Below, piece by piece: positions 5,623 to 22,910 of a stretch of DNA of 64,000 nt. Under the pieces are notes generated by a model. The model was not told where the DNA came from and did no database searches. It saw only the letters and a list, made by a program, of their open reading frames with translations. The stretch's first letter is position 1. The number at the start of each line of letters is the position of its first letter. The stretch covers positions 1,563,118 through 1,627,117 of the forward strand of contig NZ_LMOP01000008.1 of assembly GCF_001423585.1 (NCBI RefSeq), written 5' to 3'. The stretch is from Xanthomonas sp. Leaf148. Lineage in GTDB: Bacteria > Pseudomonadota > Gammaproteobacteria > Xanthomonadales > Xanthomonadaceae. A program made the position numbers and the translations under genes.

Positions 5623-6621
5623 TCAGTGCGTGCGTTCGACCGCGTAACGGGCCAGGCCGCGTAGCGCGGCCACCGCCGGGCTGGCGGGCAGGGTGTCCAG
5701 CGCCTGTTCGGCAGCGGTGGCATATTCGGCGGCGCGCTGACGGCTGTAGTCCAGTCCGCCGGTGGCGTGGATGGCGGCCAGCACTTCCGGCATTGCAGCG
5801 GCATCGCCTTGTTCGACGATCTGCCGTAGACGTTGCTGCGTGGCCGCGTCCGAATGCGCCATCGCATGGATCAACGGCAGCGTGGCCTTGCCTTCTGCCA
5901 GGTCGTCGCCCAGGTTCTTGCCCAGGTCGCTGGCGTCTGCGGCGTAATCGAGCACGTCGTCGGCGATTTGGAACGCAAAACCCAGCTGCATGCCGTAGTC
6001 ATACAGGTGCTGCTGCACATCGGCATCTGCGCCCGAGGCCAGCGCACCCAGACGGGTGCCGGCGGCGAACAGCACCGCGGTCTTGCGCTCGATCACGCGC
6101 AGGTAGGCGGCCTCGTCGGTGTCGGGGTTATGCACGTGCAAGAGCTGCAGCACTTCGCCTTCTGCGATGCGGTTGGTGGTGTCGGCCAGGATCTGCATGA
6201 CTTCCATGCGGTCCAGCTCGACCATCAACTGGAAGCTGCGCGAATACAGGAAGTCGCCCACCAGCACGCTGGGTGCATTGCCCCACAACGCGTTGGCGGT
6301 GCTGCGACCGCGGCGCAGATCCGACTCGTCCACCACGTCGTCGTGCAGCAAGGTGGAGGTGTGGATGAATTCGATGATCGCCGCCAGCTGGTGGTGCTCC
6401 GGGCCGGAGCCGCCGGCGGCATGACCGGCCAGCATCACCAGCATCGGGCGCAGGCGTTTGCCGCCGGCGGAGATGATGTGATCGGCAATCTGATTGATCA
6501 GCACGACGTCCGAGGCCAGGCGGCGACGGATCAGCGCATCCACCGCGGCCATGTCGGGCGCGGCGAGGGACTGGATCTGGGGCAGGCCCAGGACGGTGGG
6601 GAGGTCTTCGGCGATGGTCAT
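5623..6621 (-). CDS. ispB: Octaprenyl (polyprenyl) diphosphate synthase
   Basis: Trans-isoprenyl diphosphate synthase that makes the long side chain of ubiquinone from FPP and IPP. The two aspartate-rich motifs are intact: DDVVD at residues 94-98 and DDVLD at 221-225. GGKRLRPML near residues 53-61 is the IPP-binding segment, and [11 protein letters not shown] follows the first motif. Length 332 residues is usual. The start is set at [10 protein letters not shown]; an upstream extension is possible but is low-complexity and unlike the family. The gene is divergent from ssb. Confidence 0.93.
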
Positions 6622-6897: not shown

Positions 6898-7452
6898 ATG
6901 GCCCGCGGCATCAACAAAGTCATCCTCGTCGGCAACCTCGGCAACGATCCCGACACCAAGTACACCCAGGCCGGCATGGCGATCACCCGCGTAAGCCTGG
7001 CGACCACCAGCATGCGCAAGGATCGCGAAGGCAATAACCAGGAGCGCACCGAGTGGCATCGCGTGGTGTTCTTTGGAAAGCTGGGCGAAATTGCCGGTGA
7101 GTACCTGCGCAAGGGCTCGCAGGTGTATGTCGAAGGCGAACTGCGCTACGACAAGTACACCGGTCAGGACGGCGTGGAAAAGTACAGCACCGACATCGTC
7201 GCCAACGAAATGCAGATGCTTGGCGGCCGTGGTGAAGGTGGCGGTGGCGGCGGTGGCATGGGCGGCGATCGCCCGCAGCGCACACAGGCCCCGCGTCAGC
7301 AGCAGGGCGGTGGTGGCGGTGGACAAGGTGGCGGCTACGGTGGTGGCGATGGCGGCGGCGGGCAGGACTATGCCCCGCGTCGCCAGCAGCCGGCCCAGAA
7401 GCAGTCGGCGCCGCCGATGGACGATTTTGCGGACGACGATATTCCGTTCTAG
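6898..7452 (+). CDS. ssb: Single-stranded DNA-binding protein
   Basis: Binds single-stranded DNA in replication, repair and recombination. The N-terminal OB fold (about residues 1-110) begins [18 protein letters not shown], with [18 protein letters not shown] typical of bacterial SSB. A Gly/Gln-rich flexible linker follows (about 112-165), then the acidic tip [11 protein letters not shown], which recruits partner proteins. Length is 184 residues. A clear intrinsic terminator follows at 7481. Confidence 0.97.
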
Positions 7453-7480
7453 AGGATACCTTTTTAGATATGTAAACAGA

Positions 7481-7513
7481 GGCTTTTGGCGTGTTTGCCA
7501 AAGGCCTTTTTTT
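7481..7513 (+). terminator. Rho-independent terminator of ssb
   Basis: Arms GGCTTTTGGC (7481-7490) and GCCAAAGGCC (7497-7506) pair over ten positions with one wobble, with a six-base loop and a run of seven T after it. It starts 28 bases after the ssb stop. Confidence 0.9.
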
Positions 7514-8044
7514 GTTGTTAACGATTTCCAACAAGGTCCGACGACTCGTCTTTGACACGCACAGGATTTTCTAGACAGTTCATTGCCACGGAAAATGGCT
7601 GATTCGGAGGTTCCATGCGCCGCCCGAACTGTTCCAGGTGCAGCTGACCTCGTCACCGCTGCGGTAGTCCCCTGGTAGTAGTTGCTGATCCTCATGGCGC
7701 CCCGGGTGGTTTCTTGGGGAATCGCACCGAAAACTCCAGCAGGTCGGCTCAATTTTCGCTTCGTGGGCGAGGCAGGGTCCGCTGAGATAGGCGTGATGAC
7801 CGAAGGCGAAACGCGGCGCTAAAGCGATAGTAGGCGTTAACAAGTTGCCCGCTTGCGCGCGGCGTTGTTGACACAAAAACTCCGGTCGGCATCGACTGGA
7901 TGGACTGGGATCGTCTAGCAGTCCACCTCCTGCGACGCACGACATTCCATCACCGTCATGCACCGCTGGCGCGACAGGCGTTTTGCTCTGCAGCATGGGT
8001 TTCGTGCACTGCGTCTTGCAAAAAAGCGATTGCCTACTTTATGG
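7514..8044. other. Long gene-poor stretch between ssb and the sugar-catabolic operon
   Basis: About 530 bases without a convincing gene. Minus-strand frames here (for example one ending at 7580, last residues NLRISHFPWQ) have no clear ribosome site and no family I recognise; they may be remnants. The right end must hold the promoter of the operon that starts at 8108. Confidence 0.4.
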
Positions 8045-8060
8045 TGCAATCGATTGAATC
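8045..8060. promoter_or_regulatory. Probable LacI-family operator, left copy
   Basis: TGCAATCGATTGAATC contains the perfect ten-base palindrome CAATCGATTG with a central CG, the hallmark of LacI-family operators. The identical 16 bases occur at 16967-16982, between the second operon and the lacI-type gene. This copy ends 47 bases before the first ATG of the plus-strand operon. After each copy comes a similar CCT(T)AGCAT. Confidence 0.8.
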
Positions 8061-8107
8061 GCGGCGAATCCTTAGCATTTGATACCGGTTGGGAGGCCGG
8101 AAAACGG

Positions 8108-9010
8108 ATGTCTATCCAATCGAGCGGGCCGGCGCCGGCCCCGGGGTTCACGCGTCGGGATGCGCTGCGTGCTGCTGTCGCCGGGAGCATTGGCCTCGGC
8201 GTTGCGGGCATGTTGCCTGCGGCTGCCGCTGTCGCTGCAGAGCCGCGCAAGAGCAACCTGAAGCATTCCGTGGCCCGCTGGACGTTTCCGCAGCAGTCCA
8301 TCGCCCAGCTTTGCCAGACGGTGAAGGGCATCGGGTTCGCCGCCATCGATCTGGTCGGTCCGGCAGATTGGCCTGCGCTGAAGGCCAATGGTGTGTACAG
8401 CTCGATGTGCAACGGGGCGGAGATGGGCCTGGACAAGGGCTTCGCCGGCAGCCAGTTCCACGACCAGCTGGTCGAGCGCTACACGCGGCACATCGATCTG
8501 GTGGCCGATGCCGGCTATCGCAACCTCATCTGTTTTTCCGGCAACCGCAACGGTATGGACCCCAAGGAAGGCATGGTCCACGCCGAAGCCGGACTCAAGC
8601 GCATCCTCGGACATGCCGAGAAGCGCGGCGTCGTGCTGGTGATGGAACTGCTGAACTCCAAGGTCGATCATCCCGACTATCTGTGCGACAACTCGGCATG
8701 GGGCGTCGAGCTGTGCCGGCGCATCGGCTCGGATCATTTCGGCCTTCTGTACGACATCTACCACATGCAAATCATGGAGGGCGACATTATCGCCACCATC
8801 GGCAAGCATCACGCTTTCTTCAAGCATTACCACACCGCGGGCGTGCCTGGCCGGCACGAGATCGGAGACGATCAGGAACTCCACTATCCCGCCATCTGTC
8901 GCGCGATCCGCGATACCGGTTTCGACGGCTATCTGGCGCAGGAATTCATTCCTACGGCGCCTGATCCCGTTGGCTCGCTGCGCGAGGCAATCCGCCTCTG
9001 CGACGTCTGA
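8108..9010 (+). CDS. Tat-exported TIM-barrel sugar isomerase/epimerase (hydroxypyruvate isomerase-like)
   Basis: A 300-residue AP-endonuclease-2/xylose-isomerase-like TIM barrel resembling hydroxypyruvate isomerases. The N-terminus has a twin-arginine signal (TRRDALRAAVAG, with a hydrophobic stretch to about residue 43), so the folded protein is exported. Likely metal ligands are seen in order: VVLVMELLNSK, LLYDIYHMQI, HYHTAGVPGRHEIG and LAQEFIP. It is first in an operon with a GMC dehydrogenase, the dehydrogenase small subunit and a DUF1080 protein. In that setting I infer that it acts on an oxidised glycoside or sugar in the periplasm; the reaction is not known. The start is the ATG just before the Tat motif. 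Confidence 0.82.
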   Translation: MSIQSSGPAPAPGFTRRDALRAAVAGSIGLGVAGMLPAAAAVAAEPRKSNLKHSVARWTFPQQSIAQLCQTVKGIGFAAIDLVGPADWPALKANGVYSSMCNGAEMGLDKGFAGSQFHDQLVERYTRHIDLVADAGYRNLICFSGNRNGMDPKEGMVHAEAGLKRILGHAEKRGVVLVMELLNSKVDHPDYLCDNSAWGVELCRRIGSDHFGLLYDIYHMQIMEGDIIATIGKHHAFFKHYHTAGVPGRHEIGDDQELHYPAICRAIRDTGFDGYLAQEFIPTAPDPVGSLREAIRLCDV

Positions 9011-9040
9011 AACGCTATCCACCCAGGTGAAGTAGAACCC

Positions 9041-10726
9041 ATGGCAGACAATCACTACGACGCCATCGTCGTTGGCTCGGGAATCAGTGGCGGTTGGGCG
9101 GCGAAGGAGCTGACCGAGAAAGGCCTCAAGGTCCTGATGCTGGAACGCGGACGCAACATCGAGCACGTCAAGGACTATGTCAACGCGATGAAGGAAGTGT
9201 GGGATTTCCCGCACTACAACCGGCCGACCCAGGCGATGAAGGCCGACTATCCGGTGTTGAAGCGCGACTACGGCTTGGTCGAAAACCTGCAGGGCATGTG
9301 GGCAAACGAACAGGAATCGCCCTACACCGAACTCAAGCGATTCGACTGGTACCGCGCCTATCACGTGGGTGGTCGCTCGCTGCTGTGGGGACGGCAGAGC
9401 TATCGCCTGTCGGACCTGGATTTCCAGGCGAATCTCAAGGACGGCATCGCCACCGATTGGCCGATCCGCTACGCCGACCTTGCGCCCTGGTACGACTACG
9501 TGGAGAAGTTCGCCGGCATCGCCGGCACGCGCGAGGGCCTGGACGTGTTGCCCGATGGTGAGTTCCTGCCGCCGATCCCGTTGAACATCGTCGAAAAGGA
9601 CGTGGCCGCGCGGATCAAGAAGGCCTTCGGTGGGACCAGGCACCTGATTCACTCGCGCACCGCGAACATCACCCAGCCCATGGTCGAGCAGGGCCGCGTC
9701 AACTGTCAGTACCGCAACAAGTGCATCCTGGGCTGTCCCTTCGGCGCCTACTTCTCGACCCAGTCGGCGACGCTGCCGGCGGCCATGAAGACCGGCAACC
9801 TGACGTTGCGGCCCTTCTCGATCGTCAAGGAAGTGCTCTACGACAAGGACCGCAAGCGTGCGCGGGGCGTGGAGATCATCGATGCCGAGAGCGGACAGAC
9901 CTATCAGTACACGGCCAAGGTCATTTTCCTCAACGCGTCCTCCTTCAACTCGAGCTGGCTGCTGATGAGCTCGGCCACCGATGTCTGGGAAGGCGGGCTG
10001 GGTTCTTCGTCCGGCGAGCTGGGGCACAACGTGATGGACCATCATTTCGGCGCGGGCGCCTCCGGCCGGATCGAGGGCTTTGAGGACAAGTACTACTTCG
10101 GCCGTCGTCCCTGCGGTTTCTACATTCCGCGTTTCCGTAACGTCGCCGCGGACAGACGTGGCTACCTGCGTGGGTTCGGCTATCAGGGCAGCGCTAGCCG
10201 CACCGGGTGGTCGCGCGAGATCGCCGAACTGAACATCGGCGCTGACCTGAAGGACGCGCTGACCCTGCCGGGCAAATGGCGCATCGGCATGACCGGATTC
10301 GGCGAAATGCTGCCTCACCACGACAATGCGATTCGCCTGGACCCGCAGCGCAAGGACAAATGGGGATTGCCGGTGCTGGCGATGGATGTGTCCCTGCGCG
10401 CGAACGAAAAGGCCATGCGCAAGGACATGGCCGCGGATGCCGCGGAGATGCTGGAGGCCGCCGGCGTCAAGGACGTGCAGATGCACGATGACGACTACGC
10501 CCCGGGCAAGGGCATCCATGAGATGGGCACTGCCCGCATGGGCCGCGACCGCAGCAACTCGGTGCTGAACCAGCACAACCAGGTCTGGGACGCGCCGAAC
10601 GTCTACGTGACCGATGGCGCCTGCATGACGTCCAGCGCCTGCGTGAATCCCTCGCTGACCTACATGGCGCTGACGGCGCGGGCGGCCGATCACGCCGTGC
10701 GCGAGCTGAAAGCGGGGAACCTGTGA
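9041..10726 (+). CDS. GMC-family FAD oxidoreductase, probable glycoside/sugar 3-dehydrogenase large subunit
   Basis: Glucose-methanol-choline family flavoprotein, 561 residues. The FAD-binding GSGISGG is at residues 12-18. The C-terminal active-site region has IHEMGTARMG (His493) and NPSLTYMALTARA (Asn536). No signal peptide is present; it probably leaves the cell folded, in complex with the Tat-signalled small subunit encoded next, as known for related gluconate and glucoside dehydrogenases. The stop overlaps the next start in a TGATG. With the DUF1080 protein and cytochrome c nearby, oxidation of a glycoside at C3 is the best guess; other sugar alcohol substrates are possible. Confidence 0.85.
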   Translation: MADNHYDAIVVGSGISGGWAAKELTEKGLKVLMLERGRNIEHVKDYVNAMKEVWDFPHYNRPTQAMKADYPVLKRDYGLVENLQGMWANEQESPYTELKRFDWYRAYHVGGRSLLWGRQSYRLSDLDFQANLKDGIATDWPIRYADLAPWYDYVEKFAGIAGTREGLDVLPDGEFLPPIPLNIVEKDVAARIKKAFGGTRHLIHSRTANITQPMVEQGRVNCQYRNKCILGCPFGAYFSTQSATLPAAMKTGNLTLRPFSIVKEVLYDKDRKRARGVEIIDAESGQTYQYTAKVIFLNASSFNSSWLLMSSATDVWEGGLGSSSGELGHNVMDHHFGAGASGRIEGFEDKYYFGRRPCGFYIPRFRNVAADRRGYLRGFGYQGSASRTGWSREIAELNIGADLKDALTLPGKWRIGMTGFGEMLPHHDNAIRLDPQRKDKWGLPVLAMDVSLRANEKAMRKDMAADAAEMLEAAGVKDVQMHDDDYAPGKGIHEMGTARMGRDRSNSVLNQHNQVWDAPNVYVTDGACMTSSACVNPSLTYMALTARAADHAVRELKAGNL

Positions 10727-11301
10727 TGGAACGTCGCGAACTGCTGAAGATGATCGTCGCCGCCACGGGCGCGGCCATGGTCGGCCTGCCTGCGCTCGTG
10801 CATGGGCAGGCGCCGGCCGCGGGGGCGAAGACGCTCTTCTCCGCCGCCGAGGTCGGCACGCTGGACGAGATCGCCGAGACCATCCTGCCGCGGACCGCAA
10901 CGCCGGGGGCGAAGGACGCCGGCGCTGGCCCGTTCATGGCGCAATTCGTTAGCGACTGCTATGCCGCCCGGGAGCAGGCGACATTCCGCGCCGGGCTGGT
11001 CGAGATCGATAAACGCGCCGGCGGCCGATTCGTGTCGCTGACGCCGCAGGCGCGCACCGAGCTGCTGCGTGCCCTGGATGCAGAAGCCAGGAAACATGTC
11101 GTCGAAACGACCGATACCGGCACCGCCGAAATGGCGGGAGCGATCCCGCATTACTTCACCATGATCAAGCAGCTAGCCATTTTCAGCTTCTTCACCTCGA
11201 AGGTCGCGGCGACCGAAGTGCTGCGCTACGTCGCCGTGCCGGGTCGCTACGACGGCGACATGGCCTATACCCCCGGTACGCCCGCTTGGGCGATCAACTG
11301 A
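10726..11301 (+). CDS. Gluconate 2-dehydrogenase subunit 3 family protein (Tat-signalled small subunit)
   Basis: Small partner of GMC dehydrogenases, 191 residues. The N-terminus MERRELLKMIVAATGAAM is a twin-arginine signal that would carry the cofactor-loaded large subunit across the membrane. The body carries LFSAAEVGTLDEIAETILPR and ends with EVLRYVAVPGRYDGD, as usual in this family. The ATG at 10726 shares one base with the stop of the large subunit; a GTG at 10723 is an alternative start. The same TGATG coupling links it to the next gene. Confidence 0.85.
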   Translation: MERRELLKMIVAATGAAMVGLPALVHGQAPAAGAKTLFSAAEVGTLDEIAETILPRTATPGAKDAGAGPFMAQFVSDCYAAREQATFRAGLVEIDKRAGGRFVSLTPQARTELLRALDAEARKHVVETTDTGTAEMAGAIPHYFTMIKQLAIFSFFTSKVAATEVLRYVAVPGRYDGDMAYTPGTPAWAIN

Positions 11302-12089
11302 TGGACCGCAAGGATGTGCCGATGCGCCACTTCCCCGGGAACACGATGACCAGGCCCCTGCTGATGGTGGCCTGCCTGCTGGCCGCAGCGCCTGCGTTAG
11401 CGCAGACCAGCGGCGACCCGTCGCGCGATCCGGCCAAGACCGAGGCGTGGACGCCCGTACCCGCGATCGTGACCACGCGCCCTGGCGGTGCGCCCTCCGA
11501 TGCGATCGTGCTGTTCGATGGCAAAGATCTCTCCGCTTGGGAGTCGGAGCAGGGCGGTCGGGTACCGTGGAGCGTTGCCGACGGCGCGCTGACCGTGGTC
11601 CCGGGGAGCAAGGGCATCCGGACCAAGCAGCGCTTTTGCGACATCCAGCTGCATGTCGAGTGGCGCACGCCCACCGCGACCCGAGGTTTCGAAGGCCAGC
11701 AGCGGGGGAACAGCGGCATCTTCCTGCAGGAACTGTATGAGCTGCAGGTGCTCGACAGCGACAACAACCCGACCTATGCCAACGGCCAGGCCGGCGCGAT
11801 CTACAAGCAGGCCATTCCGCTGGTAAACGCGTCGCGTGCGCCGGGCGAGTGGCAGGCCTACGACATCATTTGGAAGGCGCCCCGCTTCTCGCCGGGGGGC
11901 GGGCTCACCTCACCCGCCCGCATCACCGTCCTCCATAACGGCGTGCTGGTGCAGAACGACACCGTCCTGTCGGGCAAGACCGAGTACATCGGCGCCCCGT
12001 CGTACTCGCCCCACGCGTGCGCGCCGATCTTCCTGCAGGAGCACGATTCCAAGGTTAGCTACCGCAATATCTGGGTGCGCGAGCTGTAA
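11301..12089 (+). CDS. DUF1080 / 3-keto-disaccharide hydrolase family protein, secreted
   Basis: PF06439-type protein with a concanavalin-like beta-sandwich. Seen after the signal peptide: DAIVLFDGKDLSAWES, RGNSGIFLQELYELQVLDS, WQAYDIIWKAP and ISVL-like strand ITVLHNGVLVQNDT, all hallmarks of the family. The family name reflects hydrolysis of 3-keto-disaccharides and related 3-keto-glycosides. A Sec signal (MTRPLLMVACLLAAAPALAQ) places it in the periplasm. I used the ATG at 11301, which overlaps the previous stop in TGATG; in-frame ATGs at 11322 and 11346 would give a more standard signal peptide, so the true start is uncertain. Confidence 0.82.
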   Translation: MDRKDVPMRHFPGNTMTRPLLMVACLLAAAPALAQTSGDPSRDPAKTEAWTPVPAIVTTRPGGAPSDAIVLFDGKDLSAWESEQGGRVPWSVADGALTVVPGSKGIRTKQRFCDIQLHVEWRTPTATRGFEGQQRGNSGIFLQELYELQVLDSDNNPTYANGQAGAIYKQAIPLVNASRAPGEWQAYDIIWKAPRFSPGGGLTSPARITVLHNGVLVQNDTVLSGKTEYIGAPSYSPHACAPIFLQEHDSKVSYRNIWVREL

Positions 12090-12116
12090 CGCCCGCGCGC
12101 AGTTGGCACCGGTCGC

Positions 12117-12262
12117 TGAGAGCGGCTAACAATACATAGCAAGCAGTCGTCAGATGGGCGTGGGCGGCGCGGAGCAACCGCAGCGTACGAGTGGTACATG
12201 CCGCATCGAGCACAGGCCGCGCCCGCCTCGCGGCTGCGCAGTCGTTTTGTGAGTTGCTCTTA
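12117..12262 (+). repeat. 146-bp inverted-repeat element, copy B (MITE-like)
   Basis: Member of a four-copy family in this window (see also 26125, 45574 and 63438). The left end GAGAGCGGCTAAC and the complement of the right end TAAGAGCAACTCAC form imperfect terminal inverted repeats. The body contains AAGCAGTCGTCAGATGGGCG and TACGAGTGGTACATGC. It fills the gap between two convergent operons, and its last three bases are the stop codon of the cytochrome c gene on the minus strand. Confidence 0.8.
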
Positions 12263-12556
12263 TTGCGCCAGGAAGCTGGCGATATCGTCGACTTCCTGTT
12301 GCGACAGCTGCGAAAAGGGTGGCATCAATCCGCCGCCCTTGCTGATTTTTTCCTTGATCTGCGCGGGCGGCAGCCGCTTGCCCACGTCGGTAAGCGCGGG
12401 GAACGTAGGCGGGACGCCCGCGCGATTGGCCCCATGGCAGGCCGTGCAGTGCGTTGCGTAGAGCTGCGCGCCGGCCGTCGGGTCGTCCTTGCACCACGCC
12501 GTGGTCGCAAGCGTCGCCCCCAGCAGAGCCACGGCGATTGTCAGGATCGTTTTCAA
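12260..12556 (-). CDS. Small periplasmic class I cytochrome c
   Basis: A 98-residue c-type cytochrome with a Sec signal peptide (about residues 1-22), one haem-binding CTACH at residues 37-41 and a likely distal Met78 (GGGLMPPF). It is the probable electron acceptor of the GMC dehydrogenase encoded on the facing operon, passing electrons to the respiratory chain. The start codon is TTG at 12554-12556, supported by AAGGAG seven bases upstream. It is last in a five-gene operon. Its TAA stop is the terminus of the repeat element at 12117-12262. Confidence 0.88.
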   Translation of the reverse strand: MKTILTIAVALLGATLATTAWCKDDPTAGAQLYATHCTACHGANRAGVPPTFPALTDVGKRLPPAQIKEKISKGGGLMPPFSQLSQQEVDDIASFLAQ

Positions 12557-12574
12557 GCGAGGCTCCTTAGCGCG

Positions 12575-13429
12575 CTAGCGATGCGCGCCGGCGGGCAGGT
12601 GTTCACGCAGGTAGTCAGCACCGGTCTGGATAACCGTGGCCGGATCGCGCGGACGGTCGTGCTCGATGATGTACCAGCGCACGCCGGCACCCGCTGCGGC
12701 AGGCAGGATCGCATTCCAGTCCAGCACGCCCTGGCCGACGGAGGCGAAGCCGCCCTCGTCCTCGGCCTGGCCTTTCGGGGCATTGTCCTTGGCATGTACC
12801 GCGAACATGCGGCCCTTGAACTTGCCTAGCATCACCGCCGGGTCGTAGCCTGCGCGCGCAACCCAGGCCAGGTCCAACTCGGTCTCGAGATCGGGGCCCG
12901 CCGCTGCGAACAGCAGTTCCAGACCGGTCTTGCCATTGAAGTCGACCAGTTCGAAGTCGTGGTTGTGGTAGGCCAGGTGCATGCCCTTGGCACGTAGCCG
13001 CTTCGCGATTTGGCCTAGTTCCTTGCCCAATGCGGTCCAGCCTGCGGCATCGGTCGGCCGATCCTTCTCTTCCAGGTAAGGCACCACCAGTGTCGTGTTG
13101 CCGATCGACCGGTTGAAGGCCACCACGGCGTCCAGGTTCTTGCGCAGTTCGGCCAGTTGCACGTGCGACGAGATCGCCTTGATCGAATACTTGTCGAGCA
13201 GCTGCTTGAGTTGCGCAGCGCTGACGTTGTGCATGCCGACCGTTTCCACCGCGCCCACGCCTGCGTCATGGACGATCTTCAGCTGTTGGTCGAGCGAGCC
13301 GGCGTTGCGCAGCGTGTACATCTGCACTGCGATGGGTTTTTGCGGGCCGGTGGCGTCGCGCGCGAAGGCGGGCAGGGTGACGAAGAGCAGCAGTGCGAGG
13401 GTCGCGGTCCTGCATATGGCTGTACGCAT
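12575..13429 (-). CDS. Sec-exported TIM-barrel sugar isomerase/epimerase-like protein
   Basis: A 284-residue AP-endonuclease-2-like TIM barrel with a cleavable Sec signal ending near PAFARDATG. Likely metal ligands: AYHNHDFE, LETELDLAWV, VHAKDN and the C-terminal YIIEHD. It is the second periplasmic protein of this fold in the cluster (the first is Tat-exported, at 8108). A role in cleaving, isomerising or epimerising a 3-keto sugar is inferred from context; related TIM barrels include 3-keto-glycoside lyases. A good ribosome site (GGGAGGA) precedes the ATG. It lies 18 bases before the cytochrome c gene. Confidence 0.82.
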   Translation of the reverse strand: MRTAICRTATLALLLFVTLPAFARDATGPQKPIAVQMYTLRNAGSLDQQLKIVHDAGVGAVETVGMHNVSAAQLKQLLDKYSIKAISSHVQLAELRKNLDAVVAFNRSIGNTTLVVPYLEEKDRPTDAAGWTALGKELGQIAKRLRAKGMHLAYHNHDFELVDFNGKTGLELLFAAAGPDLETELDLAWVARAGYDPAVMLGKFKGRMFAVHAKDNAPKGQAEDEGGFASVGQGVLDWNAILPAAAGAGVRWYIIEHDRPRDPATVIQTGADYLREHLPAGAHR

Positions 13430-13448
13430 GAAGAAGTCCTCCCGGGAT

Positions 13449-14573
13449 TCAATCGATGGCCGTCCAGGCGCGCGTCCTGGCCGATGTGATGACGCGATCG
13501 ACGATCAACGCCGAGCGCACTCCGTCTTCGAAGGTAGGCAGGCCTTCCGGCCGCTCCCCTTCGATGGCGCGATAGGTGTCGGCGACAAACGCCTCGAAGC
13601 AATTGCCATAGCCTTGCGCATGCCCGGCCGGCAACGTCGACAGCCGGCGTTGTTCGGCACCGCCGGCACCCGGACCGCGTACGAAGATTTCCTCGCGCTG
13701 GTCGGGCAGGCCGATCCACAGCCGTTCGGCGTCCTCCTGGTCGAACGCCACGCTGGCCCTGGCGCCATCGATCTCGAACCAGAGACGATTGCGGCGTCCG
13801 GCCGAGACCTGGCTGACCGTCAATGACGCCAGCGTGCCCGCGCCGGTTCTGAACATCGCTGCGGCCACGTCCTCGCTCGCGACCGCCTGCACCGCGCCGC
13901 CCGCCGTCGGCGTGCTGAAGCTCTGCCCGGTGAGGGCGCCGCGCTCGGCGATGACGGTCGCGAAGGCAGCGCTGACCTCGACGAAACGCTCGCCGCCGAC
14001 CCATTCCACCAGGTCGCACCAGTGCGAGCCGATGTCGGCGAACACGCGCGATGCGCCGCCCAGCGCAGGGTCCACGCGCCAGTTGTTGCTGGCAGGGTCC
14101 AACAGCCAGTCCTGCAGATAGCTGCCATGGATCAGGCGTAGCGGCCCCAGCTCGCCCTGCGCGATGCGTGCGCGCGCCTCGCGGATCACCGGGTGATAGC
14201 GGTAGACGAAGGGGACCGTGGCAACCAGCCCGGTCGAGGCAGCCAGTGCCGCCAATGCTTGGGCGTCTTGCAACGTGGTGGCCAGGGGTTTTTCGCAGAT
14301 CACGTGCTTGCCGGCTTGCAGCGCCGCCTGCGCCATGGCGCGGTGCAGATGGTTGGGTGTGCAGACGTGCACCACCTGCACCTGCGGATCGGCGACCACG
14401 TCCTCGATGTCGCGATAGGCGCGCGGCACACCCCATGACTGCGCCACGTCGCGTGCGCGTTGCGGGGAAGAGGCGGCGATGCCGCGGACCTCGGCACCGG
14501 CCAGCAGCGCCGCGCGACGATGCACGGCGCCGATCATGCCGGTGCCGACGATGGCGATTCCAAGCTTGCTCAT
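13449..14573 (-). CDS. Gfo/Idh/MocA family oxidoreductase
   Basis: NAD(P)-dependent sugar dehydrogenase/reductase family, 374 residues, cytoplasmic. The Rossmann motif GTGMIG is at residues 10-15, and the catalytic EKP at 94-96 (VICEKPLATT). A substrate-domain His in IGSHWCDLVEW is also present. In a 3-keto-glycoside pathway this enzyme would reduce the imported 3-keto sugar back to the parent sugar; that assignment is inferred. The gene lies between the permease (14586) and the exported TIM barrel (13429), all in one direction with short gaps. Confidence 0.88.
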   Translation of the reverse strand: MSKLGIAIVGTGMIGAVHRRAALLAGAEVRGIAASSPQRARDVAQSWGVPRAYRDIEDVVADPQVQVVHVCTPNHLHRAMAQAALQAGKHVICEKPLATTLQDAQALAALAASTGLVATVPFVYRYHPVIREARARIAQGELGPLRLIHGSYLQDWLLDPASNNWRVDPALGGASRVFADIGSHWCDLVEWVGGERFVEVSAAFATVIAERGALTGQSFSTPTAGGAVQAVASEDVAAAMFRTGAGTLASLTVSQVSAGRRNRLWFEIDGARASVAFDQEDAERLWIGLPDQREEIFVRGPGAGGAEQRRLSTLPAGHAQGYGNCFEAFVADTYRAIEGERPEGLPTFEDGVRSALIVDRVITSARTRAWTAID

Positions 14574-14585
14574 CGGGTGGGGTTC

Positions 14586-15803
14586 TCAGGGCGTGGAGGG
14601 CGTGGCCGCGACGACAGGCCGGTCGCGGAAGAGCAACAGGAAGGCGATCAACACGACCAACGCCACGCCTGCCGGGAACAGCCAGATCTGCTGCCAGTCC
14701 GGGCCCGCCGCCGTGGTGTAGTGCTCCACGACCGCGCCGGACAGGAACGTGCCGATCAACATGCCCACGCCGTACGTTGCCAGGGTGATGAACCCTTGCG
14801 CGCTGCTGCGCGCGGCGGGGCCGGCATGCGCATCGGTGTAGATCTGGCCGGTGACGAAGAAGAAGTCGTAGCAGATGCCGTGCAGCAGGATGCCGATCAC
14901 CAGCAAGGAAAAACCGCCGCCCGCATCGCCAAAGGCGAACATCACGTAGCGCAGCACCCACGCCGCCATGCCCAGCGCCAGCATCGTCTTGACCCCCAAC
15001 CGCACGAACAGGAACGGCATGGCCAGCATCAACAGCACTTCGGACACCTGACCCAGTGATTGCAGTCCGGCCGCGCCGCGCACGCCCAGATCGTTGAGGT
15101 ACGGGTTGGTGAAGTTGTAGTAGAACGCCAGCGGGATGCAGATGGCGATGGATGCCAGGAAGAACACCAAATAGGAGCGCGACTTCAGAAGCCGCAGCGA
15201 GTCCAGTCCCAGCATCTGTCCCAGCCCGGCGTCGCGCTGTTGCGCCAGCGGCGGCGTGTGCGGCAGGGTGAAGGCATACAGGCCCAGGGCCAGCGATGCC
15301 ATCGCCGCCATCCGGAAGGTCAGTTCGAGCCGGTGCGCCTGTTCCCAGCCCAGCCAGCCGATCATCACGCCCGCCACGATCCAGCCGACGCTGCCGGCTA
15401 CCCGCACTGGCGGGAACTGTTTTTCAGGCGATTGCATGTGCCGCATCGCCACGCTGTTGGCCAGTGCCAGCGTCGGCATGAACAGCAGCATGTACCCCAT
15501 GACGCAGGCGGAGAACATGCCGAAGCTCGTCGCCGTGGACGCCAGCCACATGAGCGCCGCACCTGCCAGGTGCAGCACCGCAAGGATGCGCTGCGCCGCG
15601 AAGTAGCGATCTGCGACCAAGCCGACCAGGAAGGGCGCCAAGATGGCGCCGATGGACTGGCTGAGAAACGCCGTCGCCACCTGGCTCGCGCTGGCCTTGA
15701 GGGGGCCCTGCACCAGGTACGTGCCCAGGGTCACGAACCATGCTCCCCAGATGAAGAACTGCAGAAACATCATCGCGCCCAAGCGCGACATGGTGTGCCT
15801 CAT
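14586..15803 (-). CDS. MFS permease, nucleoside:H+ symporter family
   Basis: About twelve membrane helices over 405 residues. The sequence resembles NupG/XapB-type transporters (LGAMMFLQFFIWGAWFVTLG at the start; LLHGICYDFFFVTGQIY in the second half). Many members of this family sit in sugar-degradation clusters and carry sugars or glycosides rather than nucleosides. Here it probably imports the product of periplasmic oxidation and cleavage. The start is supported by GGGAGGG before the ATG. A 71-bp inverted-repeat element separates it from the upstream gene. Confidence 0.87.
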   Translation of the reverse strand: MRHTMSRLGAMMFLQFFIWGAWFVTLGTYLVQGPLKASASQVATAFLSQSIGAILAPFLVGLVADRYFAAQRILAVLHLAGAALMWLASTATSFGMFSACVMGYMLLFMPTLALANSVAMRHMQSPEKQFPPVRVAGSVGWIVAGVMIGWLGWEQAHRLELTFRMAAMASLALGLYAFTLPHTPPLAQQRDAGLGQMLGLDSLRLLKSRSYLVFFLASIAICIPLAFYYNFTNPYLNDLGVRGAAGLQSLGQVSEVLLMLAMPFLFVRLGVKTMLALGMAAWVLRYVMFAFGDAGGGFSLLVIGILLHGICYDFFFVTGQIYTDAHAGPAARSSAQGFITLATYGVGMLIGTFLSGAVVEHYTTAAGPDWQQIWLFPAGVALVVLIAFLLLFRDRPVVAATPSTP

Positions 15804-15830
15804 GGCTTGCCCTCCCAGGCGGTATTGGCT

Positions 15831-15901
15831 TAGAGCGTGTTATGTACTTTGAGGTGAGTGCGAAGCGTCCTGTGGCGCGTCGAGACGCATAACACGCTCT
15901 A
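15831..15901. repeat. 71-bp element with perfect 14-bp terminal inverted repeats
   Basis: TAGAGCGTGTTATG at 15831-15844 is exactly complementary to 15888-15901. The right end supplies the TAG stop of the TIM-barrel gene that ends at 15899. The end resembles those of the 146-bp family (TAAGAGC), so it may be a related miniature element. It could also form a hairpin inside the operon transcript. Confidence 0.75.
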
Positions 15902-16951
15902 TGTCCCCAGCATGCGGCGCAGCGATTCCTGATCGGCGCCGCTGTCGGCAAAGTCGTCGAACGCGCGTTCGGTCACGCGGATGATGTGGTCGCGGATAAA
16001 CGCAGCACCCTCGCGTGCGCCGTCTTCCGGATGCTTCAGGCAACACTCCCACTCCAGCACCGCCCAGCCCGGGAAATCGTATTGCGCGAACTTCGAGAAG
16101 ATCGCCTTGAAGTCGATCTGGCCGTCGCCGAGCGAACGGAACCGCCCCGGGCGATCGATCCAGTCCTGGTAGCCGCCGTACACGCCGCTGTGCGCACTGG
16201 CGCGATACTCCGCGTCTTTGACATGGAAGATGCCGATGCGGGCGTGATACCGGTCGATGAAGCCCAGGTAGTCCATCTGCTGCAGCAGCAAGTGGCTGGG
16301 GTCGTACAGGATCTTGGCGCGTGGGTGGTGGTCCACGACATCGAGGAAGCGCTCGAAGGTCGCGCCGTCGTGCAGGTCCTCGCCCGGGTGGATCTCGAAG
16401 CACAGGTCCACGCCGCAGGCGTCGAAGGCATCCAGAATGGGGCGCCAGCGGCGGCCGAGTTCGGCGAAGGCTTCTTCCACCAGCCCGGGCGGCCGCTGCG
16501 GCCAGGGGTATAAGTAGGGCCAGGCCAGCGCGCCGGAGAACGTGGCATGCGCAGTCAGCCCCAGGCGCTGGCTGGCCTTGGCCGCCAACAGCAATTGTTC
16601 AACCGCCCAGGCCTGGCGGGCGGCGGGGTTGCCGCGTTTGTCTGACGGTGCGAATCCGTCGAACAGCTGGTCGTAGGCGGGGTGCACGGCGACCAGCTGC
16701 CCCTGCAAGTGGGTCGACAACTCGGTGACCTGCAGCCCGTGCCCGGCCAGCATGCCGGCGACGTCGTCGCAGTACGCCTGGCTCTGTGCGGCCTGGGCCA
16801 GATCGAACAGGTGCGGCGCGCTGGTCGGCACTTGTACGCCAGAATACCCCAGGCCCGCAGCCCAACCGGCCAGTGTGTCCAAGCGATTGAAGGGAGGTGT
16901 GTCGGCGATGAACTGTGCCAGGAATAGCGCCGGACCCTTGAGCGTCTTCAA
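15899..16951 (-). CDS. Cytoplasmic TIM-barrel sugar isomerase/epimerase
   Basis: A 350-residue AP-endonuclease-2/xylose-isomerase-like barrel without a signal peptide. Likely metal-binding residues lie in CFEIHPGEDLHDG, ILYDPSHLLLQ, FHVKDAEY and VLEWEC. It is first in the minus-strand operon and is presumably the cytoplasmic partner of the two exported barrels. The start is TTG at 16949-16951 after GAGGGCG; it lies only 15 bases from the operator at 16967, so a bound repressor would directly block this operon. The stop codon is part of the inverted-repeat element at 15831-15901. Confidence 0.83.
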   Translation of the reverse strand: MKTLKGPALFLAQFIADTPPFNRLDTLAGWAAGLGYSGVQVPTSAPHLFDLAQAAQSQAYCDDVAGMLAGHGLQVTELSTHLQGQLVAVHPAYDQLFDGFAPSDKRGNPAARQAWAVEQLLLAAKASQRLGLTAHATFSGALAWPYLYPWPQRPPGLVEEAFAELGRRWRPILDAFDACGVDLCFEIHPGEDLHDGATFERFLDVVDHHPRAKILYDPSHLLLQQMDYLGFIDRYHARIGIFHVKDAEYRASAHSGVYGGYQDWIDRPGRFRSLGDGQIDFKAIFSKFAQYDFPGWAVLEWECCLKHPEDGAREGAAFIRDHIIRVTERAFDDFADSGADQESLRRMLGT

Positions 16952-16966
16952 CGTAATTCGCCCTCA

Positions 16967-16982
16967 TGCAATCGATTGAATC
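16967..16982. promoter_or_regulatory. Probable LacI-family operator, right copy
   Basis: TGCAATCGATTGAATC, identical to 8045-8060, with the perfect CAATCGATTG core at 16969-16978. It lies in the 95-base divergent region between the minus-strand operon and the regulator gene at 17047, so it could control both. Confidence 0.82.
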
Positions 16983-17046
16983 ATCCTAGCATGGGCCTTC
17001 CGCAAGACCCGTTGTGCACTGCACAGCAGAAAGAAGAATCAAGGTC

Positions 17047-18057
17047 ATGGCTACAACCATCTACGACATCGCAAAGCACGTTGGCGTCACCGCCGGCACG
17101 GTGTCGCGGGCGCTTTCCCGGCCGGAAAAAGTCCTGCCCGCCACGCGCACGCGTATCGAGCAGGCCGCCGCGGCGCTGGGCTATGTCCCGAACACAGTGG
17201 CCAGGACGCTCAAGACCCAGCGCAGCGGCAAGCTCCTGGTCACCGTCCCGGACATCGCCAATCCATTCTTCGCCCAGATCCTGCAGGGCGCGGAGGACGC
17301 GGCGCAGGCCGTCGGCTACGCCGTCCTGCTGGGTGATACCCAGCACCAGCCCGATCGCGAGGAGCGCTACGCGCAGATGCTTCTCCGTAACGAGGCAGAC
17401 GGCCTGATCGTGCTGGGGCACGGCCTCCCGCCGACGGCGCGTGAGATCGTCAAGCAGCTAGGCGCCGCCGCGCCGGTGGTCAACGGATGCGAGTTCGACC
17501 CGGCGCTTGGCATCCCCAGCGTCCACATCGACAACGCGGCCGCCGCGCGCGCCATGATGGAACACCTGTATGGACTGGGGCACGAGCGGGTCGCCGTGGT
17601 GGGCGGCCCGCCCGACAATCCGCTGCACCAGCAACGCCTGGAAGGGGTCCGGGCCTCCGGCAAGGCACGCGGCCGTCTGCGCAAACTGACCGTCGTGCCG
17701 GGCGACTTCTCCGTAGAATCCGGCCATGCGGCTGCGATGGCGCTATTGGCCCGTGTGCCCGCGCCGACCGCGATCTTCTGCTTCAGCGATCAAATGGCGC
17801 TGGGCGCCCTGGCCGCTTGCCGGGACCTGGGTATCCGCGTGCCGGATGACCTGTCCATTGTCGGCTTCGACGACCTGGCGTCGTCGAGTTACCTCACGCC
17901 GCCATTGACGACCATCCGGCAACCCATGCGAGAGATCGGTGTCCGCGCGGTCAACCTGCTGCTCGCCATCATCGAAAGGGTGGACGTGCCGCTGCAGCAG
18001 ACGCTGGATTTCAGCTTGATGCTGCGCGGATCCACGGGTGCGCCGAGGGCGAGGTGA
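17047..18057 (+). CDS. LacI-family transcriptional regulator of the sugar-catabolic cluster
   Basis: A 336-residue repressor. The N-terminal helix-turn-helix is TIYDIAKHVGVTAGTVSRAL (residues 4-23), with the hinge helix near NTVARTLKTQ. The periplasmic-binding-protein-like effector domain follows, with VTVPDIANPFFAQILQG, GFDDLASSSYLTPPLTTIRQ and other hallmarks. The duplicated CAATCGATTG operator at both operon starts is its probable target, and a 3-keto sugar or the parent sugar its probable inducer (inferred). The ATG at 17047 is preferred over GTG at 17014, since it begins the conserved MATTIYDIAKH. Confidence 0.9.
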   Translation: MATTIYDIAKHVGVTAGTVSRALSRPEKVLPATRTRIEQAAAALGYVPNTVARTLKTQRSGKLLVTVPDIANPFFAQILQGAEDAAQAVGYAVLLGDTQHQPDREERYAQMLLRNEADGLIVLGHGLPPTAREIVKQLGAAAPVVNGCEFDPALGIPSVHIDNAAAARAMMEHLYGLGHERVAVVGGPPDNPLHQQRLEGVRASGKARGRLRKLTVVPGDFSVESGHAAAMALLARVPAPTAIFCFSDQMALGALAACRDLGIRVPDDLSIVGFDDLASSSYLTPPLTTIRQPMREIGVRAVNLLLAIIERVDVPLQQTLDFSLMLRGSTGAPRAR

Positions 18058-18113: not shown

Positions 18114-19619
18114 TCAGGCCGACGTACGATCCCGCCCGCTCTGCTTGGCGCGATACAGCGCCGAATCGGCGTCATGCACGATGGCGTCGGGGGTCAACGG
18201 TGCTTCGCCGGGTTCGAAGGTGGCGGCGCCGACGCTAACGGTGACGTGCGCGCTGGTGGGGCTCGGCAGATGCATCAGGCCGAGTTCGGCCACCGCGCTG
18301 CGCACGGCATCGGCCTGGCGCAGCGCACCGGCGGCATCGGTATGCGGCAGGATCATGCCGAACTCTTCGCCGCCATACCGCGCCGCCACGTCGCTGCTGC
18401 GCCGCGAGCAGCCGGCGATGGCGCCGGCAATCAGGCGCAGGCAGGCGTCGCCATTCACATGGCCATAGGTGTCGTTATAGAGCTTGAAGTGATCGACATC
18501 GATCATCAGCACCGATAACGGCGCTTGCAGGCGTACCGCATCCTGCAAGGCCTGCGACAACCGATAATCGAACGCGCGTCGGTTGGCGACGCCGGTCAAT
18601 GCATCCACCCAGGCCTCGGAACTGAGTTTGGCTTCGTTGCGATGCATGCGGCGCAGCTGCAGGTCCAGCCAGATGCCCACGCCCAGCAGCAGGGCGCAGC
18701 CAAGCGTGGCGATCACGATGCGCTGGTCCGCGGCATGCCGCCAATTGGCCAGCGCATCGTCCACCGACACGCCGGTCAGCACGCTCAGCGGATACGGCCG
18801 TGCCGGGGCGAAGCTGGAGATGCGCTCCACGCCATCGATCGGCGAGCGATAGGTCGCCGTGCCATGTCGGCGCGCGCGCATGTTGACGTAGATCGAGGTG
18901 CCGGCAATCGAGCTGCCGATCACGCCCTGCTTGTCGGGCCGGCGTAACAGCACGATGCCATCGTCGTTGATCATGCCGATGGTGCCGTGCGGGCCGACGT
19001 CGAAGGTGCTGTAGTGCTGCTGGAAATACTTCAGCTGCAGCGTCACCAGCACCACCCCGGCAAAGTCGCCGTCCGGGCCGTTGAGCCGGCGGCTCAGTGT
19101 CAGCACCCAGCTGCCATCGGAGCGGCTTTTGACCGGTGCGCCGACCAGCGACAACGCATCGCGATGGTCGCGGTGATACTTGAAGTAGGCGCGGTCGGCG
19201 TTGTTATGCGTCTTGGGGGTGCTATCCAGCGACGAGCTGACCCAGCTGCCATCTGCCGCGTAGATGAAGATGCCATGCAGGCGGTCCGAACGCCTTGCCT
19301 CGCGCACCAGGAATTCGTGCATTGCTGCGCGCGCGCTGGTATTGCCCTGGTCGTGCTCGACGCGCGCGACCAGGCCGGACAGCACTGCGTCGGCGATCGA
19401 CATGGTGTCGCTGGCATGCTGCGCCAGCGAGTTAGCAAGGTTCAACGACTGCGCTTCGGCACCGCGCAGCGCGGATGCACGTTCTTCATGGATGGACCAG
19501 TACTCCGAACCGAGCAGTAGCATGCACGCCATGGTCAGCACGAAGTGCAACGCAATGCGTTGTGCACGTTGCCGCCGCCGCTTGGTGGGTGATGTCACTG
19601 TGGCTACCTGTCCAGACAC
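18114..19619 (-). CDS. Membrane diguanylate cyclase (dCache-like sensor + GGDEF)
   Basis: Makes the second messenger c-di-GMP. Layout over 501 residues: cytoplasmic basic N-terminus, helix about 22-40, a periplasmic PDC/dCache-like sensor (about 45-295), helix about 300-322, then the GGDEF domain. The active site is GGEEF at 416-420, and the inhibitory site RSSD at 407-410 is spaced five residues from it, so product inhibition is likely. The signal is unknown; related sensor domains bind small organic molecules. The start is a GTG without a strong ribosome site, so the first residues are uncertain. It is convergent with the lacI-type gene. Confidence 0.9.
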   Translation of the reverse strand: MSGQVATVTSPTKRRRQRAQRIALHFVLTMACMLLLGSEYWSIHEERASALRGAEAQSLNLANSLAQHASDTMSIADAVLSGLVARVEHDQGNTSARAAMHEFLVREARRSDRLHGIFIYAADGSWVSSSLDSTPKTHNNADRAYFKYHRDHRDALSLVGAPVKSRSDGSWVLTLSRRLNGPDGDFAGVVLVTLQLKYFQQHYSTFDVGPHGTIGMINDDGIVLLRRPDKQGVIGSSIAGTSIYVNMRARRHGTATYRSPIDGVERISSFAPARPYPLSVLTGVSVDDALANWRHAADQRIVIATLGCALLLGVGIWLDLQLRRMHRNEAKLSSEAWVDALTGVANRRAFDYRLSQALQDAVRLQAPLSVLMIDVDHFKLYNDTYGHVNGDACLRLIAGAIAGCSRRSSDVAARYGGEEFGMILPHTDAAGALRQADAVRSAVAELGLMHLPSPTSAHVTVSVGAATFEPGEAPLTPDAIVHDADSALYRAKQSGRDRTSA

Positions 19620-20960: not shown

Positions 20961-21320
20961 CCAGGCAAGCACGTTTTCATGCGTTGCAGCATCAGCACCC
21001 GCAACGCATCTGCTGATGCCGAACACGGTTTCATAACGGTGGGGTGGTGGTGCGCGTCGCGGTCGGCATGTGATCACGCGCGCAGCGGATGATGCAGAAA
21101 TCCGTTGTATCGCTGCGGCGCGCTCCAATCACGCCGCACAGTGATGAGCACGTTTCATAGACGCATGCCAGCTCCAACGCCAATGCACGGGCAGGCGACA
21201 ACTAGAATCGGGTAACGACCGATTGCATCGCTCCCAAGTGCCGCACTCACGCGCTTGTGACCGACGGCCCTGCACATTGATAAAGAACTGTATTAGCCAG
21301 CATTGTTGGAGATGCCAGCC

Positions 21321-22909: not shown

Positions 22910-22910
22910 T

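What the first reader, a model, noticed from the sequence alone, without database searches (positions are those of the whole stretch)
8045..18057. LacI-controlled island for periplasmic 3-keto-glycoside breakdown
Two convergent operons combine a GMC dehydrogenase, its Tat-signalled small subunit, a DUF1080 protein (PF06439, named for 3-keto-disaccharide hydrolysis), a cytochrome c, three TIM-barrel isomerase/lyase-like proteins, a Gfo/Idh/MocA oxidoreductase and an MFS permease. The parts fit one route: oxidise a glycoside at C3 in the periplasm with electrons to cytochrome c, cleave the keto-glycoside, import the 3-keto sugar, reduce it back. This is an alternative to classical glycosidases. 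Family assignments come from sequence; the order of steps and the substrate are inference.
Basis: partly seen in the sequence, partly recalled or inferred. Interest (0 to 1): 0.85.

Follow-up and report, generated by a model that had tools for sequence, protein, structure and literature searches.

The report
Xanthomonas locus for oxidative glycoside cleavage
A ten-gene Xanthomonas locus most likely breaks sugar bonds outside the inner membrane by oxidising, splitting, re-hydrating and re-reducing the sugar instead of hydrolysing it, a recently described route of which this is a new example.

Summary
Confirmed: ten intact genes at 8045-18057, two convergent operons plus a LacI gene, in a Xanthomonas genome. 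TIM2 (12575-13429) is an exported ortholog of the Mn-dependent 3-keto-O-glycoside beta-eliminase AtOGE (59% identity, active-site His kept). TIM3 (15899-16951) is the 2-hydroxy-3-keto-glucal hydratase (71% identity to PDB 8ro4). So cleavage is probably largely elimination, followed by import, hydration and reduction. The GMC enzyme keeps three 3Fe-4S cysteines. TIM1, a Tat-exported epimerase-like barrel that travels with DUF1080, has no assigned job. The palindrome CAATCGATTG lies at both operon promoters in 29 of 29 related clusters where both can be tested: one LacI regulon. The locus looks ancestral and patchily lost, not a mobile island. It belongs to the known 'glycoside utilisation' kind (Agrobacterium, Caulobacter). 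Unexpected: one congener, and some Pseudomonas and enterobacterial relatives, keep exported eliminase, hydratase and reductase while no close relative of the dehydrogenase was found in their genomes. They may feed on 3-keto-glycosides made by other microbes. Substrates remain unknown.

The parts
8045..8059 (+). LacI operator 1, TGCAATCGATTGAAT (core CAATCGATTG), centre about 56 bp before the TIM1 start codon
   Evidence: Exact 15-mer found only twice in the 5.2 Mb genome; core found upstream of TIM1 in 29 of 29 related clusters that hold TIM1
8108..9010 (+). TIM1: Tat-signalled PF01261 barrel, keto-sugar epimerase/isomerase-like; role unknown
   Evidence: PF01261 90 bits; twin Arg nearly invariant and E180/D216/H242/E279 invariant in 34 aligned sequences; AF2 model mean pLDDT 78, top Foldseek hit YcjR 3-keto-glucoside 4-epimerase 6wn6, level with 3ngf
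9041..10726 (+). GMC: FAD dehydrogenase, putative glycoside 3-dehydrogenase large subunit
   Evidence: GMC_oxred; C222/C228/C232 match the 3Fe-4S ligands C212/C218/C222 of BcGDH; 75-76% identity to the GMC of seven Agrobacterium/Rhizobium clusters
10723..11301 (+). SUB3: Tat-signalled hitchhiker subunit (Gluconate_2-dh3)
   Evidence: PF13618 102 bits; N-terminus MERRELLKM
11346..12089 (+). DUF1080 (PF06439) exported 3-keto-glycoside-cleaving protein
   Evidence: PF06439 151 bits; 255 bits to 4qhz; hydrophobic leader MTRPLLMVACLLAAAPALA
12260..12556 (-). CYTC: exported mono-haem cytochrome c (CTACH), putative electron acceptor
   Evidence: PF13442 60 bits; ORF
12575..13429 (-). TIM2: exported Mn-type 3-keto-O-glycoside beta-eliminase (OGE ortholog)
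   Evidence: 329 bits, 148 of 250 identical to 8bvk AtOGE; H132, H134, H189 kept as H155, H157, H212; leader peptide
13449..14573 (-). GFO: Gfo/Idh/MocA oxidoreductase, putative cytoplasmic 3-keto-glucose reductase
   Evidence: GFO_IDH_MocA 116 bits; nearest named models LGDH-like, far below their cut-offs; only 28-31% identity to the Gfo of Agrobacterium-type clusters
14586..15803 (-). MFS: PF03825 permease, putative importer of the keto-sugar product
   Evidence: PF03825 380 bits; found next to HYD in many relatives
15899..16951 (-). TIM3: 2-hydroxy-3-keto-glucal hydratase (HYD ortholog), no leader seen
   Evidence: 595 bits, 249 of 349 identical to 8ro4
16967..16981 (+). LacI operator 2, TGCAATCGATTGAAT, between TIM3 and lacI
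   Evidence: core present at this place in 31 of 31 related clusters
17047..18057 (+). LacI-family regulator
   Evidence: LacI 56 bits and Peripla_BP_3 132 bits

Best explanation
A LacI-repressed glycoside utilisation locus. (1) In the periplasm the Tat-exported GMC/SUB3 pair oxidises the C3 hydroxyl of a glucoside or related glycoside; electrons go FAD to 3Fe-4S to the small cytochrome c. (2) The 3-keto-glycoside is split in the periplasm by the Mn-type eliminase TIM2 (beta-glycosides) and by DUF1080 (probably other linkages, such as alpha). The aglycone or second sugar is released, with 2-hydroxy-3-keto-glucal as the sugar product of elimination. (3) The keto-glucal, or its hydrate, is imported by the PF03825 permease. 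(4) Cytoplasmic TIM3 hydrates it to 3-keto-glucose. (5) GFO reduces that to glucose with NAD(P)H. (6) TIM1 is likely an exported epimerase or isomerase that reshapes a 3-keto sugar or glycoside, perhaps so that galactosides can enter the glucose route. LacI holds both operons through one palindrome until a pathway sugar binds. Shown here: gene content, orthology of TIM2 and TIM3 to characterised enzymes, kept catalytic residues, leaders (by hydropathy and Tat motif only), and the shared conserved operator. Inferred: substrate, order and direction of transport, GFO reaction, DUF1080 and TIM1 reactions, inducer.
For: TIM3 vs 8ro4, named 2-hydroxy-3-keto-glucal hydratase: full length, 71%. TIM2 vs 8bvk AtOGE: 59%, metal and catalytic His kept; AtOGE reaction and Mn need from PMC10628242 (passages). 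Seven Agrobacterium/Rhizobium clusters hold GMC 75-76%, HYD 71-72%, OGE 56-59% and SUB3 42-45% identical to the window. GMC 3Fe-4S cysteines. In Caulobacter a DUF1080 mutant has a strong defect on lactose, LacABC are required, and a nearby transporter, two epimerases and a reductase matter too (PMC9007349, passages). Operator core before TIM1 in 29 of 29 clusters with TIM1, at TIM3/LacI in 31 of 31, 1 other site in 609,779 bp.
Against: GFO is only 28-31% identical to the Gfo of the Agrobacterium-type clusters and lies far below every named model cut-off, so the reductase step rests on context. DUF1080 has also been reported as an endo-xanthanase (PMC9007349 passage) and proposed as a xanthan glycosidase (PMC5673643 passages). 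The MFS family is named for nucleosides. Two cleaving enzymes in one compartment look redundant. No sigma-70-type promoter was found by the scan (0, with 1.6 expected by chance). I have no expression or activity data for this organism.
Confidence: 0.8

Rival explanations
1. One reading: DUF1080 alone hydrolyses the 3-keto-glycoside, the barrels are isomerases, and free 3-keto sugar is imported and reduced.
For: PF06439 is strong and is named 3-keto-disaccharide hydrolase; Price et al. propose hydrolysis for Caulobacter (PMC9007349 passages).
Against: TIM2 and TIM3 are close orthologs of a measured eliminase and a hydratase, enzymes with no place in a hydrolase-only route. Seven Agrobacterium/Rhizobium clusters with GMC, OGE and HYD show no DUF1080 hit within 10 kb.
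Confidence: 0.1
2. The locus serves a polyol, anhydrosugar (levoglucosan-like) or inositol substrate rather than O-glycosides.
For: GFO is nearest to levoglucosan dehydrogenase and inositol dehydrogenase models and TIM2/TIM3 weakly match IolE; a levoglucosan operon of similar plan is described (PMC10628242 passage).
Against: The initial oxidation here is by a GMC with a Tat partner, and TIM2/TIM3 are far closer to OGE and HYD (329 and 595 bits) than to any inositol enzyme in the PDB list; GFO is far below those models' cut-offs.
Confidence: 0.07
3. A xanthan- or cell-envelope-related system in which DUF1080 acts as an endo-glycosidase on the organism's own polysaccharide, with the rest as cleanup.
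For: A DUF1080 protein, THTE_1561, is reported as endo-xanthanase, and Xanthomonas makes xanthan (general knowledge).
Against: Short single-domain exported DUF1080 (247 aa); most congeners searched lack the GMC (present in 10 of 35); similar clusters in Halomonas, Paracoccus, Stenotrophomonas.
Confidence: 0.03

Closest known systems
Agrobacterium tumefaciens GlycDH-AtOGE-AtHYD-Gfo operon (PMC10628242, passages read; Kastner et al. 2024 Angew. e202410681, title seen in reference lists only, content recalled)
   Same: Oxidation, elimination, hydration, reduction; GMC + Tat partner; OGE 59% to 8bvk and HYD 71% to 8ro4; GMC 75-76% to seven Agrobacterium/Rhizobium cluster genes
   Different: Window adds DUF1080, Tat-exported TIM1, cytochrome c and an MFS; Gfo is only about 30% alike. 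The words periplasm and signal peptide do not occur in the main text of that paper, whereas the OGE clade here looks exported
Caulobacter LacABC/DUF1080 lactose cluster (PMC9007349, passages read)
   Same: GMC dehydrogenase complex, DUF1080, transporter, two 'epimerases' and a reductase, linked to lactose and salicin use
   Different: I did not compare sequences with Caulobacter; regulation and exact gene set were not compared
Bacteroides BT2156-BT2160 type loci (NCBIfam BT_2158/BT_2159; otherwise recalled)
   Same: C3 oxidation and DUF1080 cleavage idea
   Different: Uses Gfo/Idh dehydrogenases; window GFO scores 41 bits against BT_2158_fam and 50 against BT_2159_fam, cut-offs 750 and 650
Burkholderia FAD glucose dehydrogenase complex (6a2u; PMC6719666 passages)
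   Same: GMC catalytic subunit with 3Fe-4S, Tat hitchhiker, cytochrome c acceptor
   Different: Low similarity (116 bits); oxidises the first hydroxyl of glucose; three-haem membrane cytochrome, here a 98-aa mono-haem protein; the disulfide Cys213 is aligned with Gln here

Membership tests
Non-hydrolytic glycoside utilisation locus (Agrobacterium type) | FAD glycoside 3-dehydrogenase with Tat partner | tested here: met
   Met by sequence: GMC 75-76% and SUB3 42-45% to seven Agrobacterium/Rhizobium cluster genes; Tat motif. Oxidation at C3 not tested
Non-hydrolytic glycoside utilisation locus (Agrobacterium type) | 3-keto-O-glycoside beta-eliminase (OGE) | tested here: met
   By sequence: 148/250 identical to 8bvk, H132/H134/H189 kept
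Non-hydrolytic glycoside utilisation locus (Agrobacterium type) | 2-hydroxy-3-keto-glucal hydratase (HYD) | tested here: met
   By sequence: 249/349 identical to 8ro4 over full length
Non-hydrolytic glycoside utilisation locus (Agrobacterium type) | 3-keto-glucose reductase of the Gfo family | tested here: inconclusive
   Gfo family clear, but 28-31% to Agrobacterium-type cluster Gfo, no named model passed
Non-hydrolytic glycoside utilisation locus (Agrobacterium type) | Catalytic activities and growth on glycosides | not testable with these tools
   Needs enzymes and mutants
PF06439 3-keto-disaccharide hydrolase | Score over gathering cut-off | tested here: met
   151 bits vs 26.8
Tat-hitchhiker 3Fe-4S FAD dehydrogenase complex (BcGDH type) | Three Cys ligands of the 3Fe-4S cluster | tested here: met
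   C222, C228, C232 align with C212, C218, C222
Tat-hitchhiker 3Fe-4S FAD dehydrogenase complex (BcGDH type) | Three-haem membrane cytochrome c subunit | tested here: not met
   The neighbouring cytochrome has one CxxCH and 98 aa; a cytochrome elsewhere in the genome was not sought
YcjR 3-keto-glucoside 4-epimerase (for TIM1) | Same fold and keto-sugar metal site | tested here: inconclusive

The most novel reading that the evidence does not exclude
3-Keto-glycosides are a shared food: a 'consumer-only' form of this locus (exported eliminase, importer, hydratase, reductase, LacI, but no dehydrogenase of this type) exists in at least two separate places on the tree, in one Xanthomonas evidently by clean loss of the dehydrogenase half, and in a Pseudomonas/enterobacterial clade, and lives on 3-keto-glycosides that neighbouring producers release. 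The full locus in the window would be a producer-consumer.
Probability: 0.35. Interest if true: 0.7.

Novelty: new member of a known kind. Interest (0 to 1): 0.45.

Why it matters
It assigns two proteins that profile libraries leave as generic TIM barrels to defined chemistry, and gives a ten-gene, one-regulator example in a genus of plant bacteria. It makes three open points testable: where in the cell the eliminase works, what the Tat-exported TIM1 does, and whether bacteria without a dehydrogenase of this type feed on 3-keto-glycosides from others. If the last holds, an oxidised sugar is a public good in plant-associated communities.

Tried and rejected
Rejected: 'the eliminase moved to the periplasm in Xanthomonas'. 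I first thought so because crystallised AtOGE starts at the barrel, but the Agrobacterium genes also carry a hydrophobic leader. By a crude hydropathy test (uncharged 10-residue stretch, mean at least 1.75, best of the printed start codons chosen) the best copy passes in 54 of 54 loci with OGE at 49% or more; of the 22 printed rows below 49%, 19 score under 1.6 and 3 (L162, L170, L173) above. Rows at 33% or less were not printed. The second copy in L144 (49%) fails. No SignalP was run.

Rejected: mobile island. In 8 of 9 carrier regions (L045-L053; not L046) ssb is beside the cluster. Of 20 regions taken from congeners without a close GMC (L174-L193), 11 have ssb and the GGDEF gene next to each other, 6 have another stretch of about 6 kb between them, 1 (L177) has the half cluster, 2 (L175, L191) end at a contig end.

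An apparent consumer-only case, L146, was dropped: its genome has a 72% GMC elsewhere. L127 (Neorhizobium MAG) shows no GMC match over 31% but is a MAG and its PF13618 content was not checked.

Led nowhere: promoter scan (0 sites, 1.6 expected); paper searches for Xanthomonas clusters (3 papers, by their listing none on such clusters) and for cross-feeding on 3-keto-glycosides (0 papers; 12 of 494 listed, none relevant by title); the operator-like site at contig C13 (no clear target). I considered YcjR-type C4 epimerisation for TIM1 and could not decide it by fold.
Full report
What is there. The window lies in a Xanthomonas genome: its genus-mates G013, G019 and G025 have contigs of the same lengths (50273, 287741, 196768) as records of X. 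codiaei, X. melonis and X. maliensis; the species of the window itself is not told. Between ssb (about 6983-7555, one search finds it in 35 of 35 genomes of the genus) and a dCache-GGDEF gene (18114-19619) sit ten intact genes. On the + strand: TIM1 (8108-9010), GMC (9041-10726), SUB3 (10723-11301, overlapping GMC by 4 bases), DUF1080 (11346-12089). On the - strand, from 16951 down: TIM3, MFS, GFO, TIM2, CYTC (end 12260). LacI is at 17047-18057. Some starts are choices of mine: TIM1 could start at 7958, DUF1080 at 11286, LacI at 17014.

Oxidation. The GMC protein has three cysteines at the places of the 3Fe-4S ligands C212, C218 and C222 of Burkholderia glucose dehydrogenase; the fourth, which bonds to the hitchhiker there, is not kept. 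SUB3 has a Tat motif. The 98-residue cytochrome has one CxxCH. An electron path FAD to 3Fe-4S to cytochrome c is therefore plausible; that this cytochrome is the partner is inference from position.

Regulation. TGCAATCGATTGAAT stands before TIM1 (8045-8059) and between TIM3 and lacI (16967-16981). No other exact copy was found in the 5.2 Mb genome; with up to 2 mismatches there are 13 rows, overlapping readings of the same sites included, and none for the reversed control. In the window 8 matches with up to 3 mismatches were found against 1.33 expected. In 31 related clusters of the same family (three duplicate loci, L094, L095 and L097, left out; L118, labelled [Pseudomonas] boreopolis, included) the core CAATCGATTG lies before TIM1 in 29 of 29 that hold TIM1, between TIM3 and lacI in 31 of 31, and once elsewhere in 609,779 bases. 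At the clusters outside the family that I scanned, the 15-mer was not found with up to 2 mismatches, save single 2-mismatch sites in L062 and L146, so the operator looks family-specific.

Relatives. One scan of named genomes with a TIM2 alignment gave 80 loci, the best of at least 579. Of these, 54 hold an OGE at 49% or more; 47 of the 54 have a GMC at 50% or more within the fetched flank, 40 have DUF1080 (45% or more) and 36 of those 40 also TIM1; none of the 14 without DUF1080 has TIM1. One of the four exceptions, L106, ends before TIM1. All these loci were found through TIM2, and relatedness inflates the counts, but TIM1 goes with DUF1080 rather than with OGE. The seven Agrobacterium/Rhizobium clusters show LacI, HYD, Gfo, OGE, GMC and SUB3 only. 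HYD is common: 86 of 398 Pseudomonadota genomes and 10 of 369 of the class at E up to 1e-100, the window's own counted. In 80 of the 86, an OGE of 42% or more is in only 6 and a GMC at E up to 1e-60 in 22, so HYD must often serve other partners.

History. In this genus a GMC of 96% or more is in 10 of 35 genomes and HYD in 11 of 35, the window's genome counted in both. The ssb-linked place is shared with a second genus (L053), and ssb is also near in four Stenotrophomonas loci (L098, L100, L102, L107). Eleven of 20 congener regions without a close GMC show ssb and GGDEF side by side. Ancestral presence with repeated loss fits better than a recent island.

Consumer-only loci. The congener with HYD but no close GMC is G009: ssb, TIM2, GFO, MFS, TIM3, lacI, GGDEF, with operon 1 and CYTC gone and the operator before TIM3 kept. 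Its five genes are intact, with Ka/Ks 0.06-0.35 against the window, the range of three full-cluster congeners (0.06-0.33), so there is no sign of decay, though the loss may be recent. Its only GMC relative is 29% alike, a type also present in congeners with the full cluster. Similar sets lie in Pseudomonas chlororaphis, P. floridensis, a gammaproteobacterium (L143, L150, L145) and two genomes of family f193 (L263, L264; enterobacteria-like, my guess), with OGE and HYD apart in two more (L265-L268) and OGE at a contig end in Erwinia rhapontici (L141). Searches of the nine genomes found either no GMC match (G687, G797, G744, L150), a 55-residue FAD-motif fragment (L143), or matches of 25-32% (G009, G840, L141, L145); the Neorhizobium MAG of L127 has matches up to 31%. 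In another suspect, L146, a 72% GMC was found. The hitchhiker family PF13618 is absent in 5 of the 9 (G687, G797, G744, L143, L150), present over cut-off in 3 (G840, L141, L145), and just below cut-off in G009. So other hitchhiker-type dehydrogenases cannot be excluded in four of the nine, and unrelated ones (PQQ type, for example) in any of them; completeness is not told for the genomes reached through loci. In a tree of 80 OGE-like proteins the Pseudomonas/f193/Erwinia eight form one clade (100/99) outside the 56-row clade (95/94) that holds every GMC-linked row but L172, while G009 falls among Xanthomonas: two separate places at least (long branches and uneven composition were reported, L265 among them).

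Known or new. Chemistry and core genes are known from Agrobacterium (PMC10628242, passages) and, with DUF1080, from Caulobacter lactose genetics (PMC9007349, passages). From recall, not read here: Kastner et al. 2024 describe the hydratase and an alpha-selective lyase of Bacteroides, which is my ground for giving DUF1080 the alpha role; Nasseri et al. 2024 (Nature) describe a broad 3-keto pathway; a glucoside 3-dehydrogenase from Stenotrophomonas maltophilia has been studied. I found no paper on Xanthomonas clusters or on feeding on foreign 3-keto-glycosides in the held library, which lacks most subscription journals. Hence: new member of a known kind, with a consumer-only variant worth testing.

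Noticed in passing
G009 (L177:2525-7934); L143, L145, L150, L263, L264: Versions of the locus without a close GMC dehydrogenase in the genome (exported OGE, MFS, HYD, GFO, LacI); see novel case.
   Followed up: partly
L179:2590-8201; also L178, L180, L181, L182, L187: In 6 of 20 congener regions a different stretch of about 6 kb sits at the same ssb-GGDEF place; in L179, the only one I scanned, it is a TonB-dependent receptor plus a PD40/amidohydrolase protein.
   Followed up: partly
L044 about 6466-6569 (G000:C8:847465-847568): Two further CAATCGATTG sites lie between a TonB-receptor-like and an MFS-like gene, near an amylosucrase-like gene and a LacI gene (32% to the window's); a sux-like sucrose locus by eye and recall, no family search run. 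The two regulators may share an operator.
   Followed up: no
L055:8421-10684 and L113: A second, distant DUF1080 (25-27%) and GMC (32-34%) pair lies between TIM2 and DUF1080 in two relatives.
   Followed up: no
window 29878-31074 (-): Protein with an X-Tfes XVIPCD domain (68 bits), by its name the mark of Xanthomonadales type IV secretion effectors.
   Followed up: no
window 21303-25118 (+): Three-gene molybdenum hydroxylase-like set: 2Fe-2S and MoCo subunits by Pfam, the middle gene not scanned; the first has a Tat-like start by eye. Near the cluster site in many congeners too.
   Followed up: no
window 18114-19619 (-): dCache-GGDEF diguanylate cyclase directly beside lacI; a sugar-sensing link is possible but untested.
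   Followed up: no
Agrobacterium/Rhizobium loci L119, L123, L126, L133-L135, L137: The eliminase genes also encode a hydrophobic leader, so the published AtOGE may work in the periplasm.
   Followed up: partly
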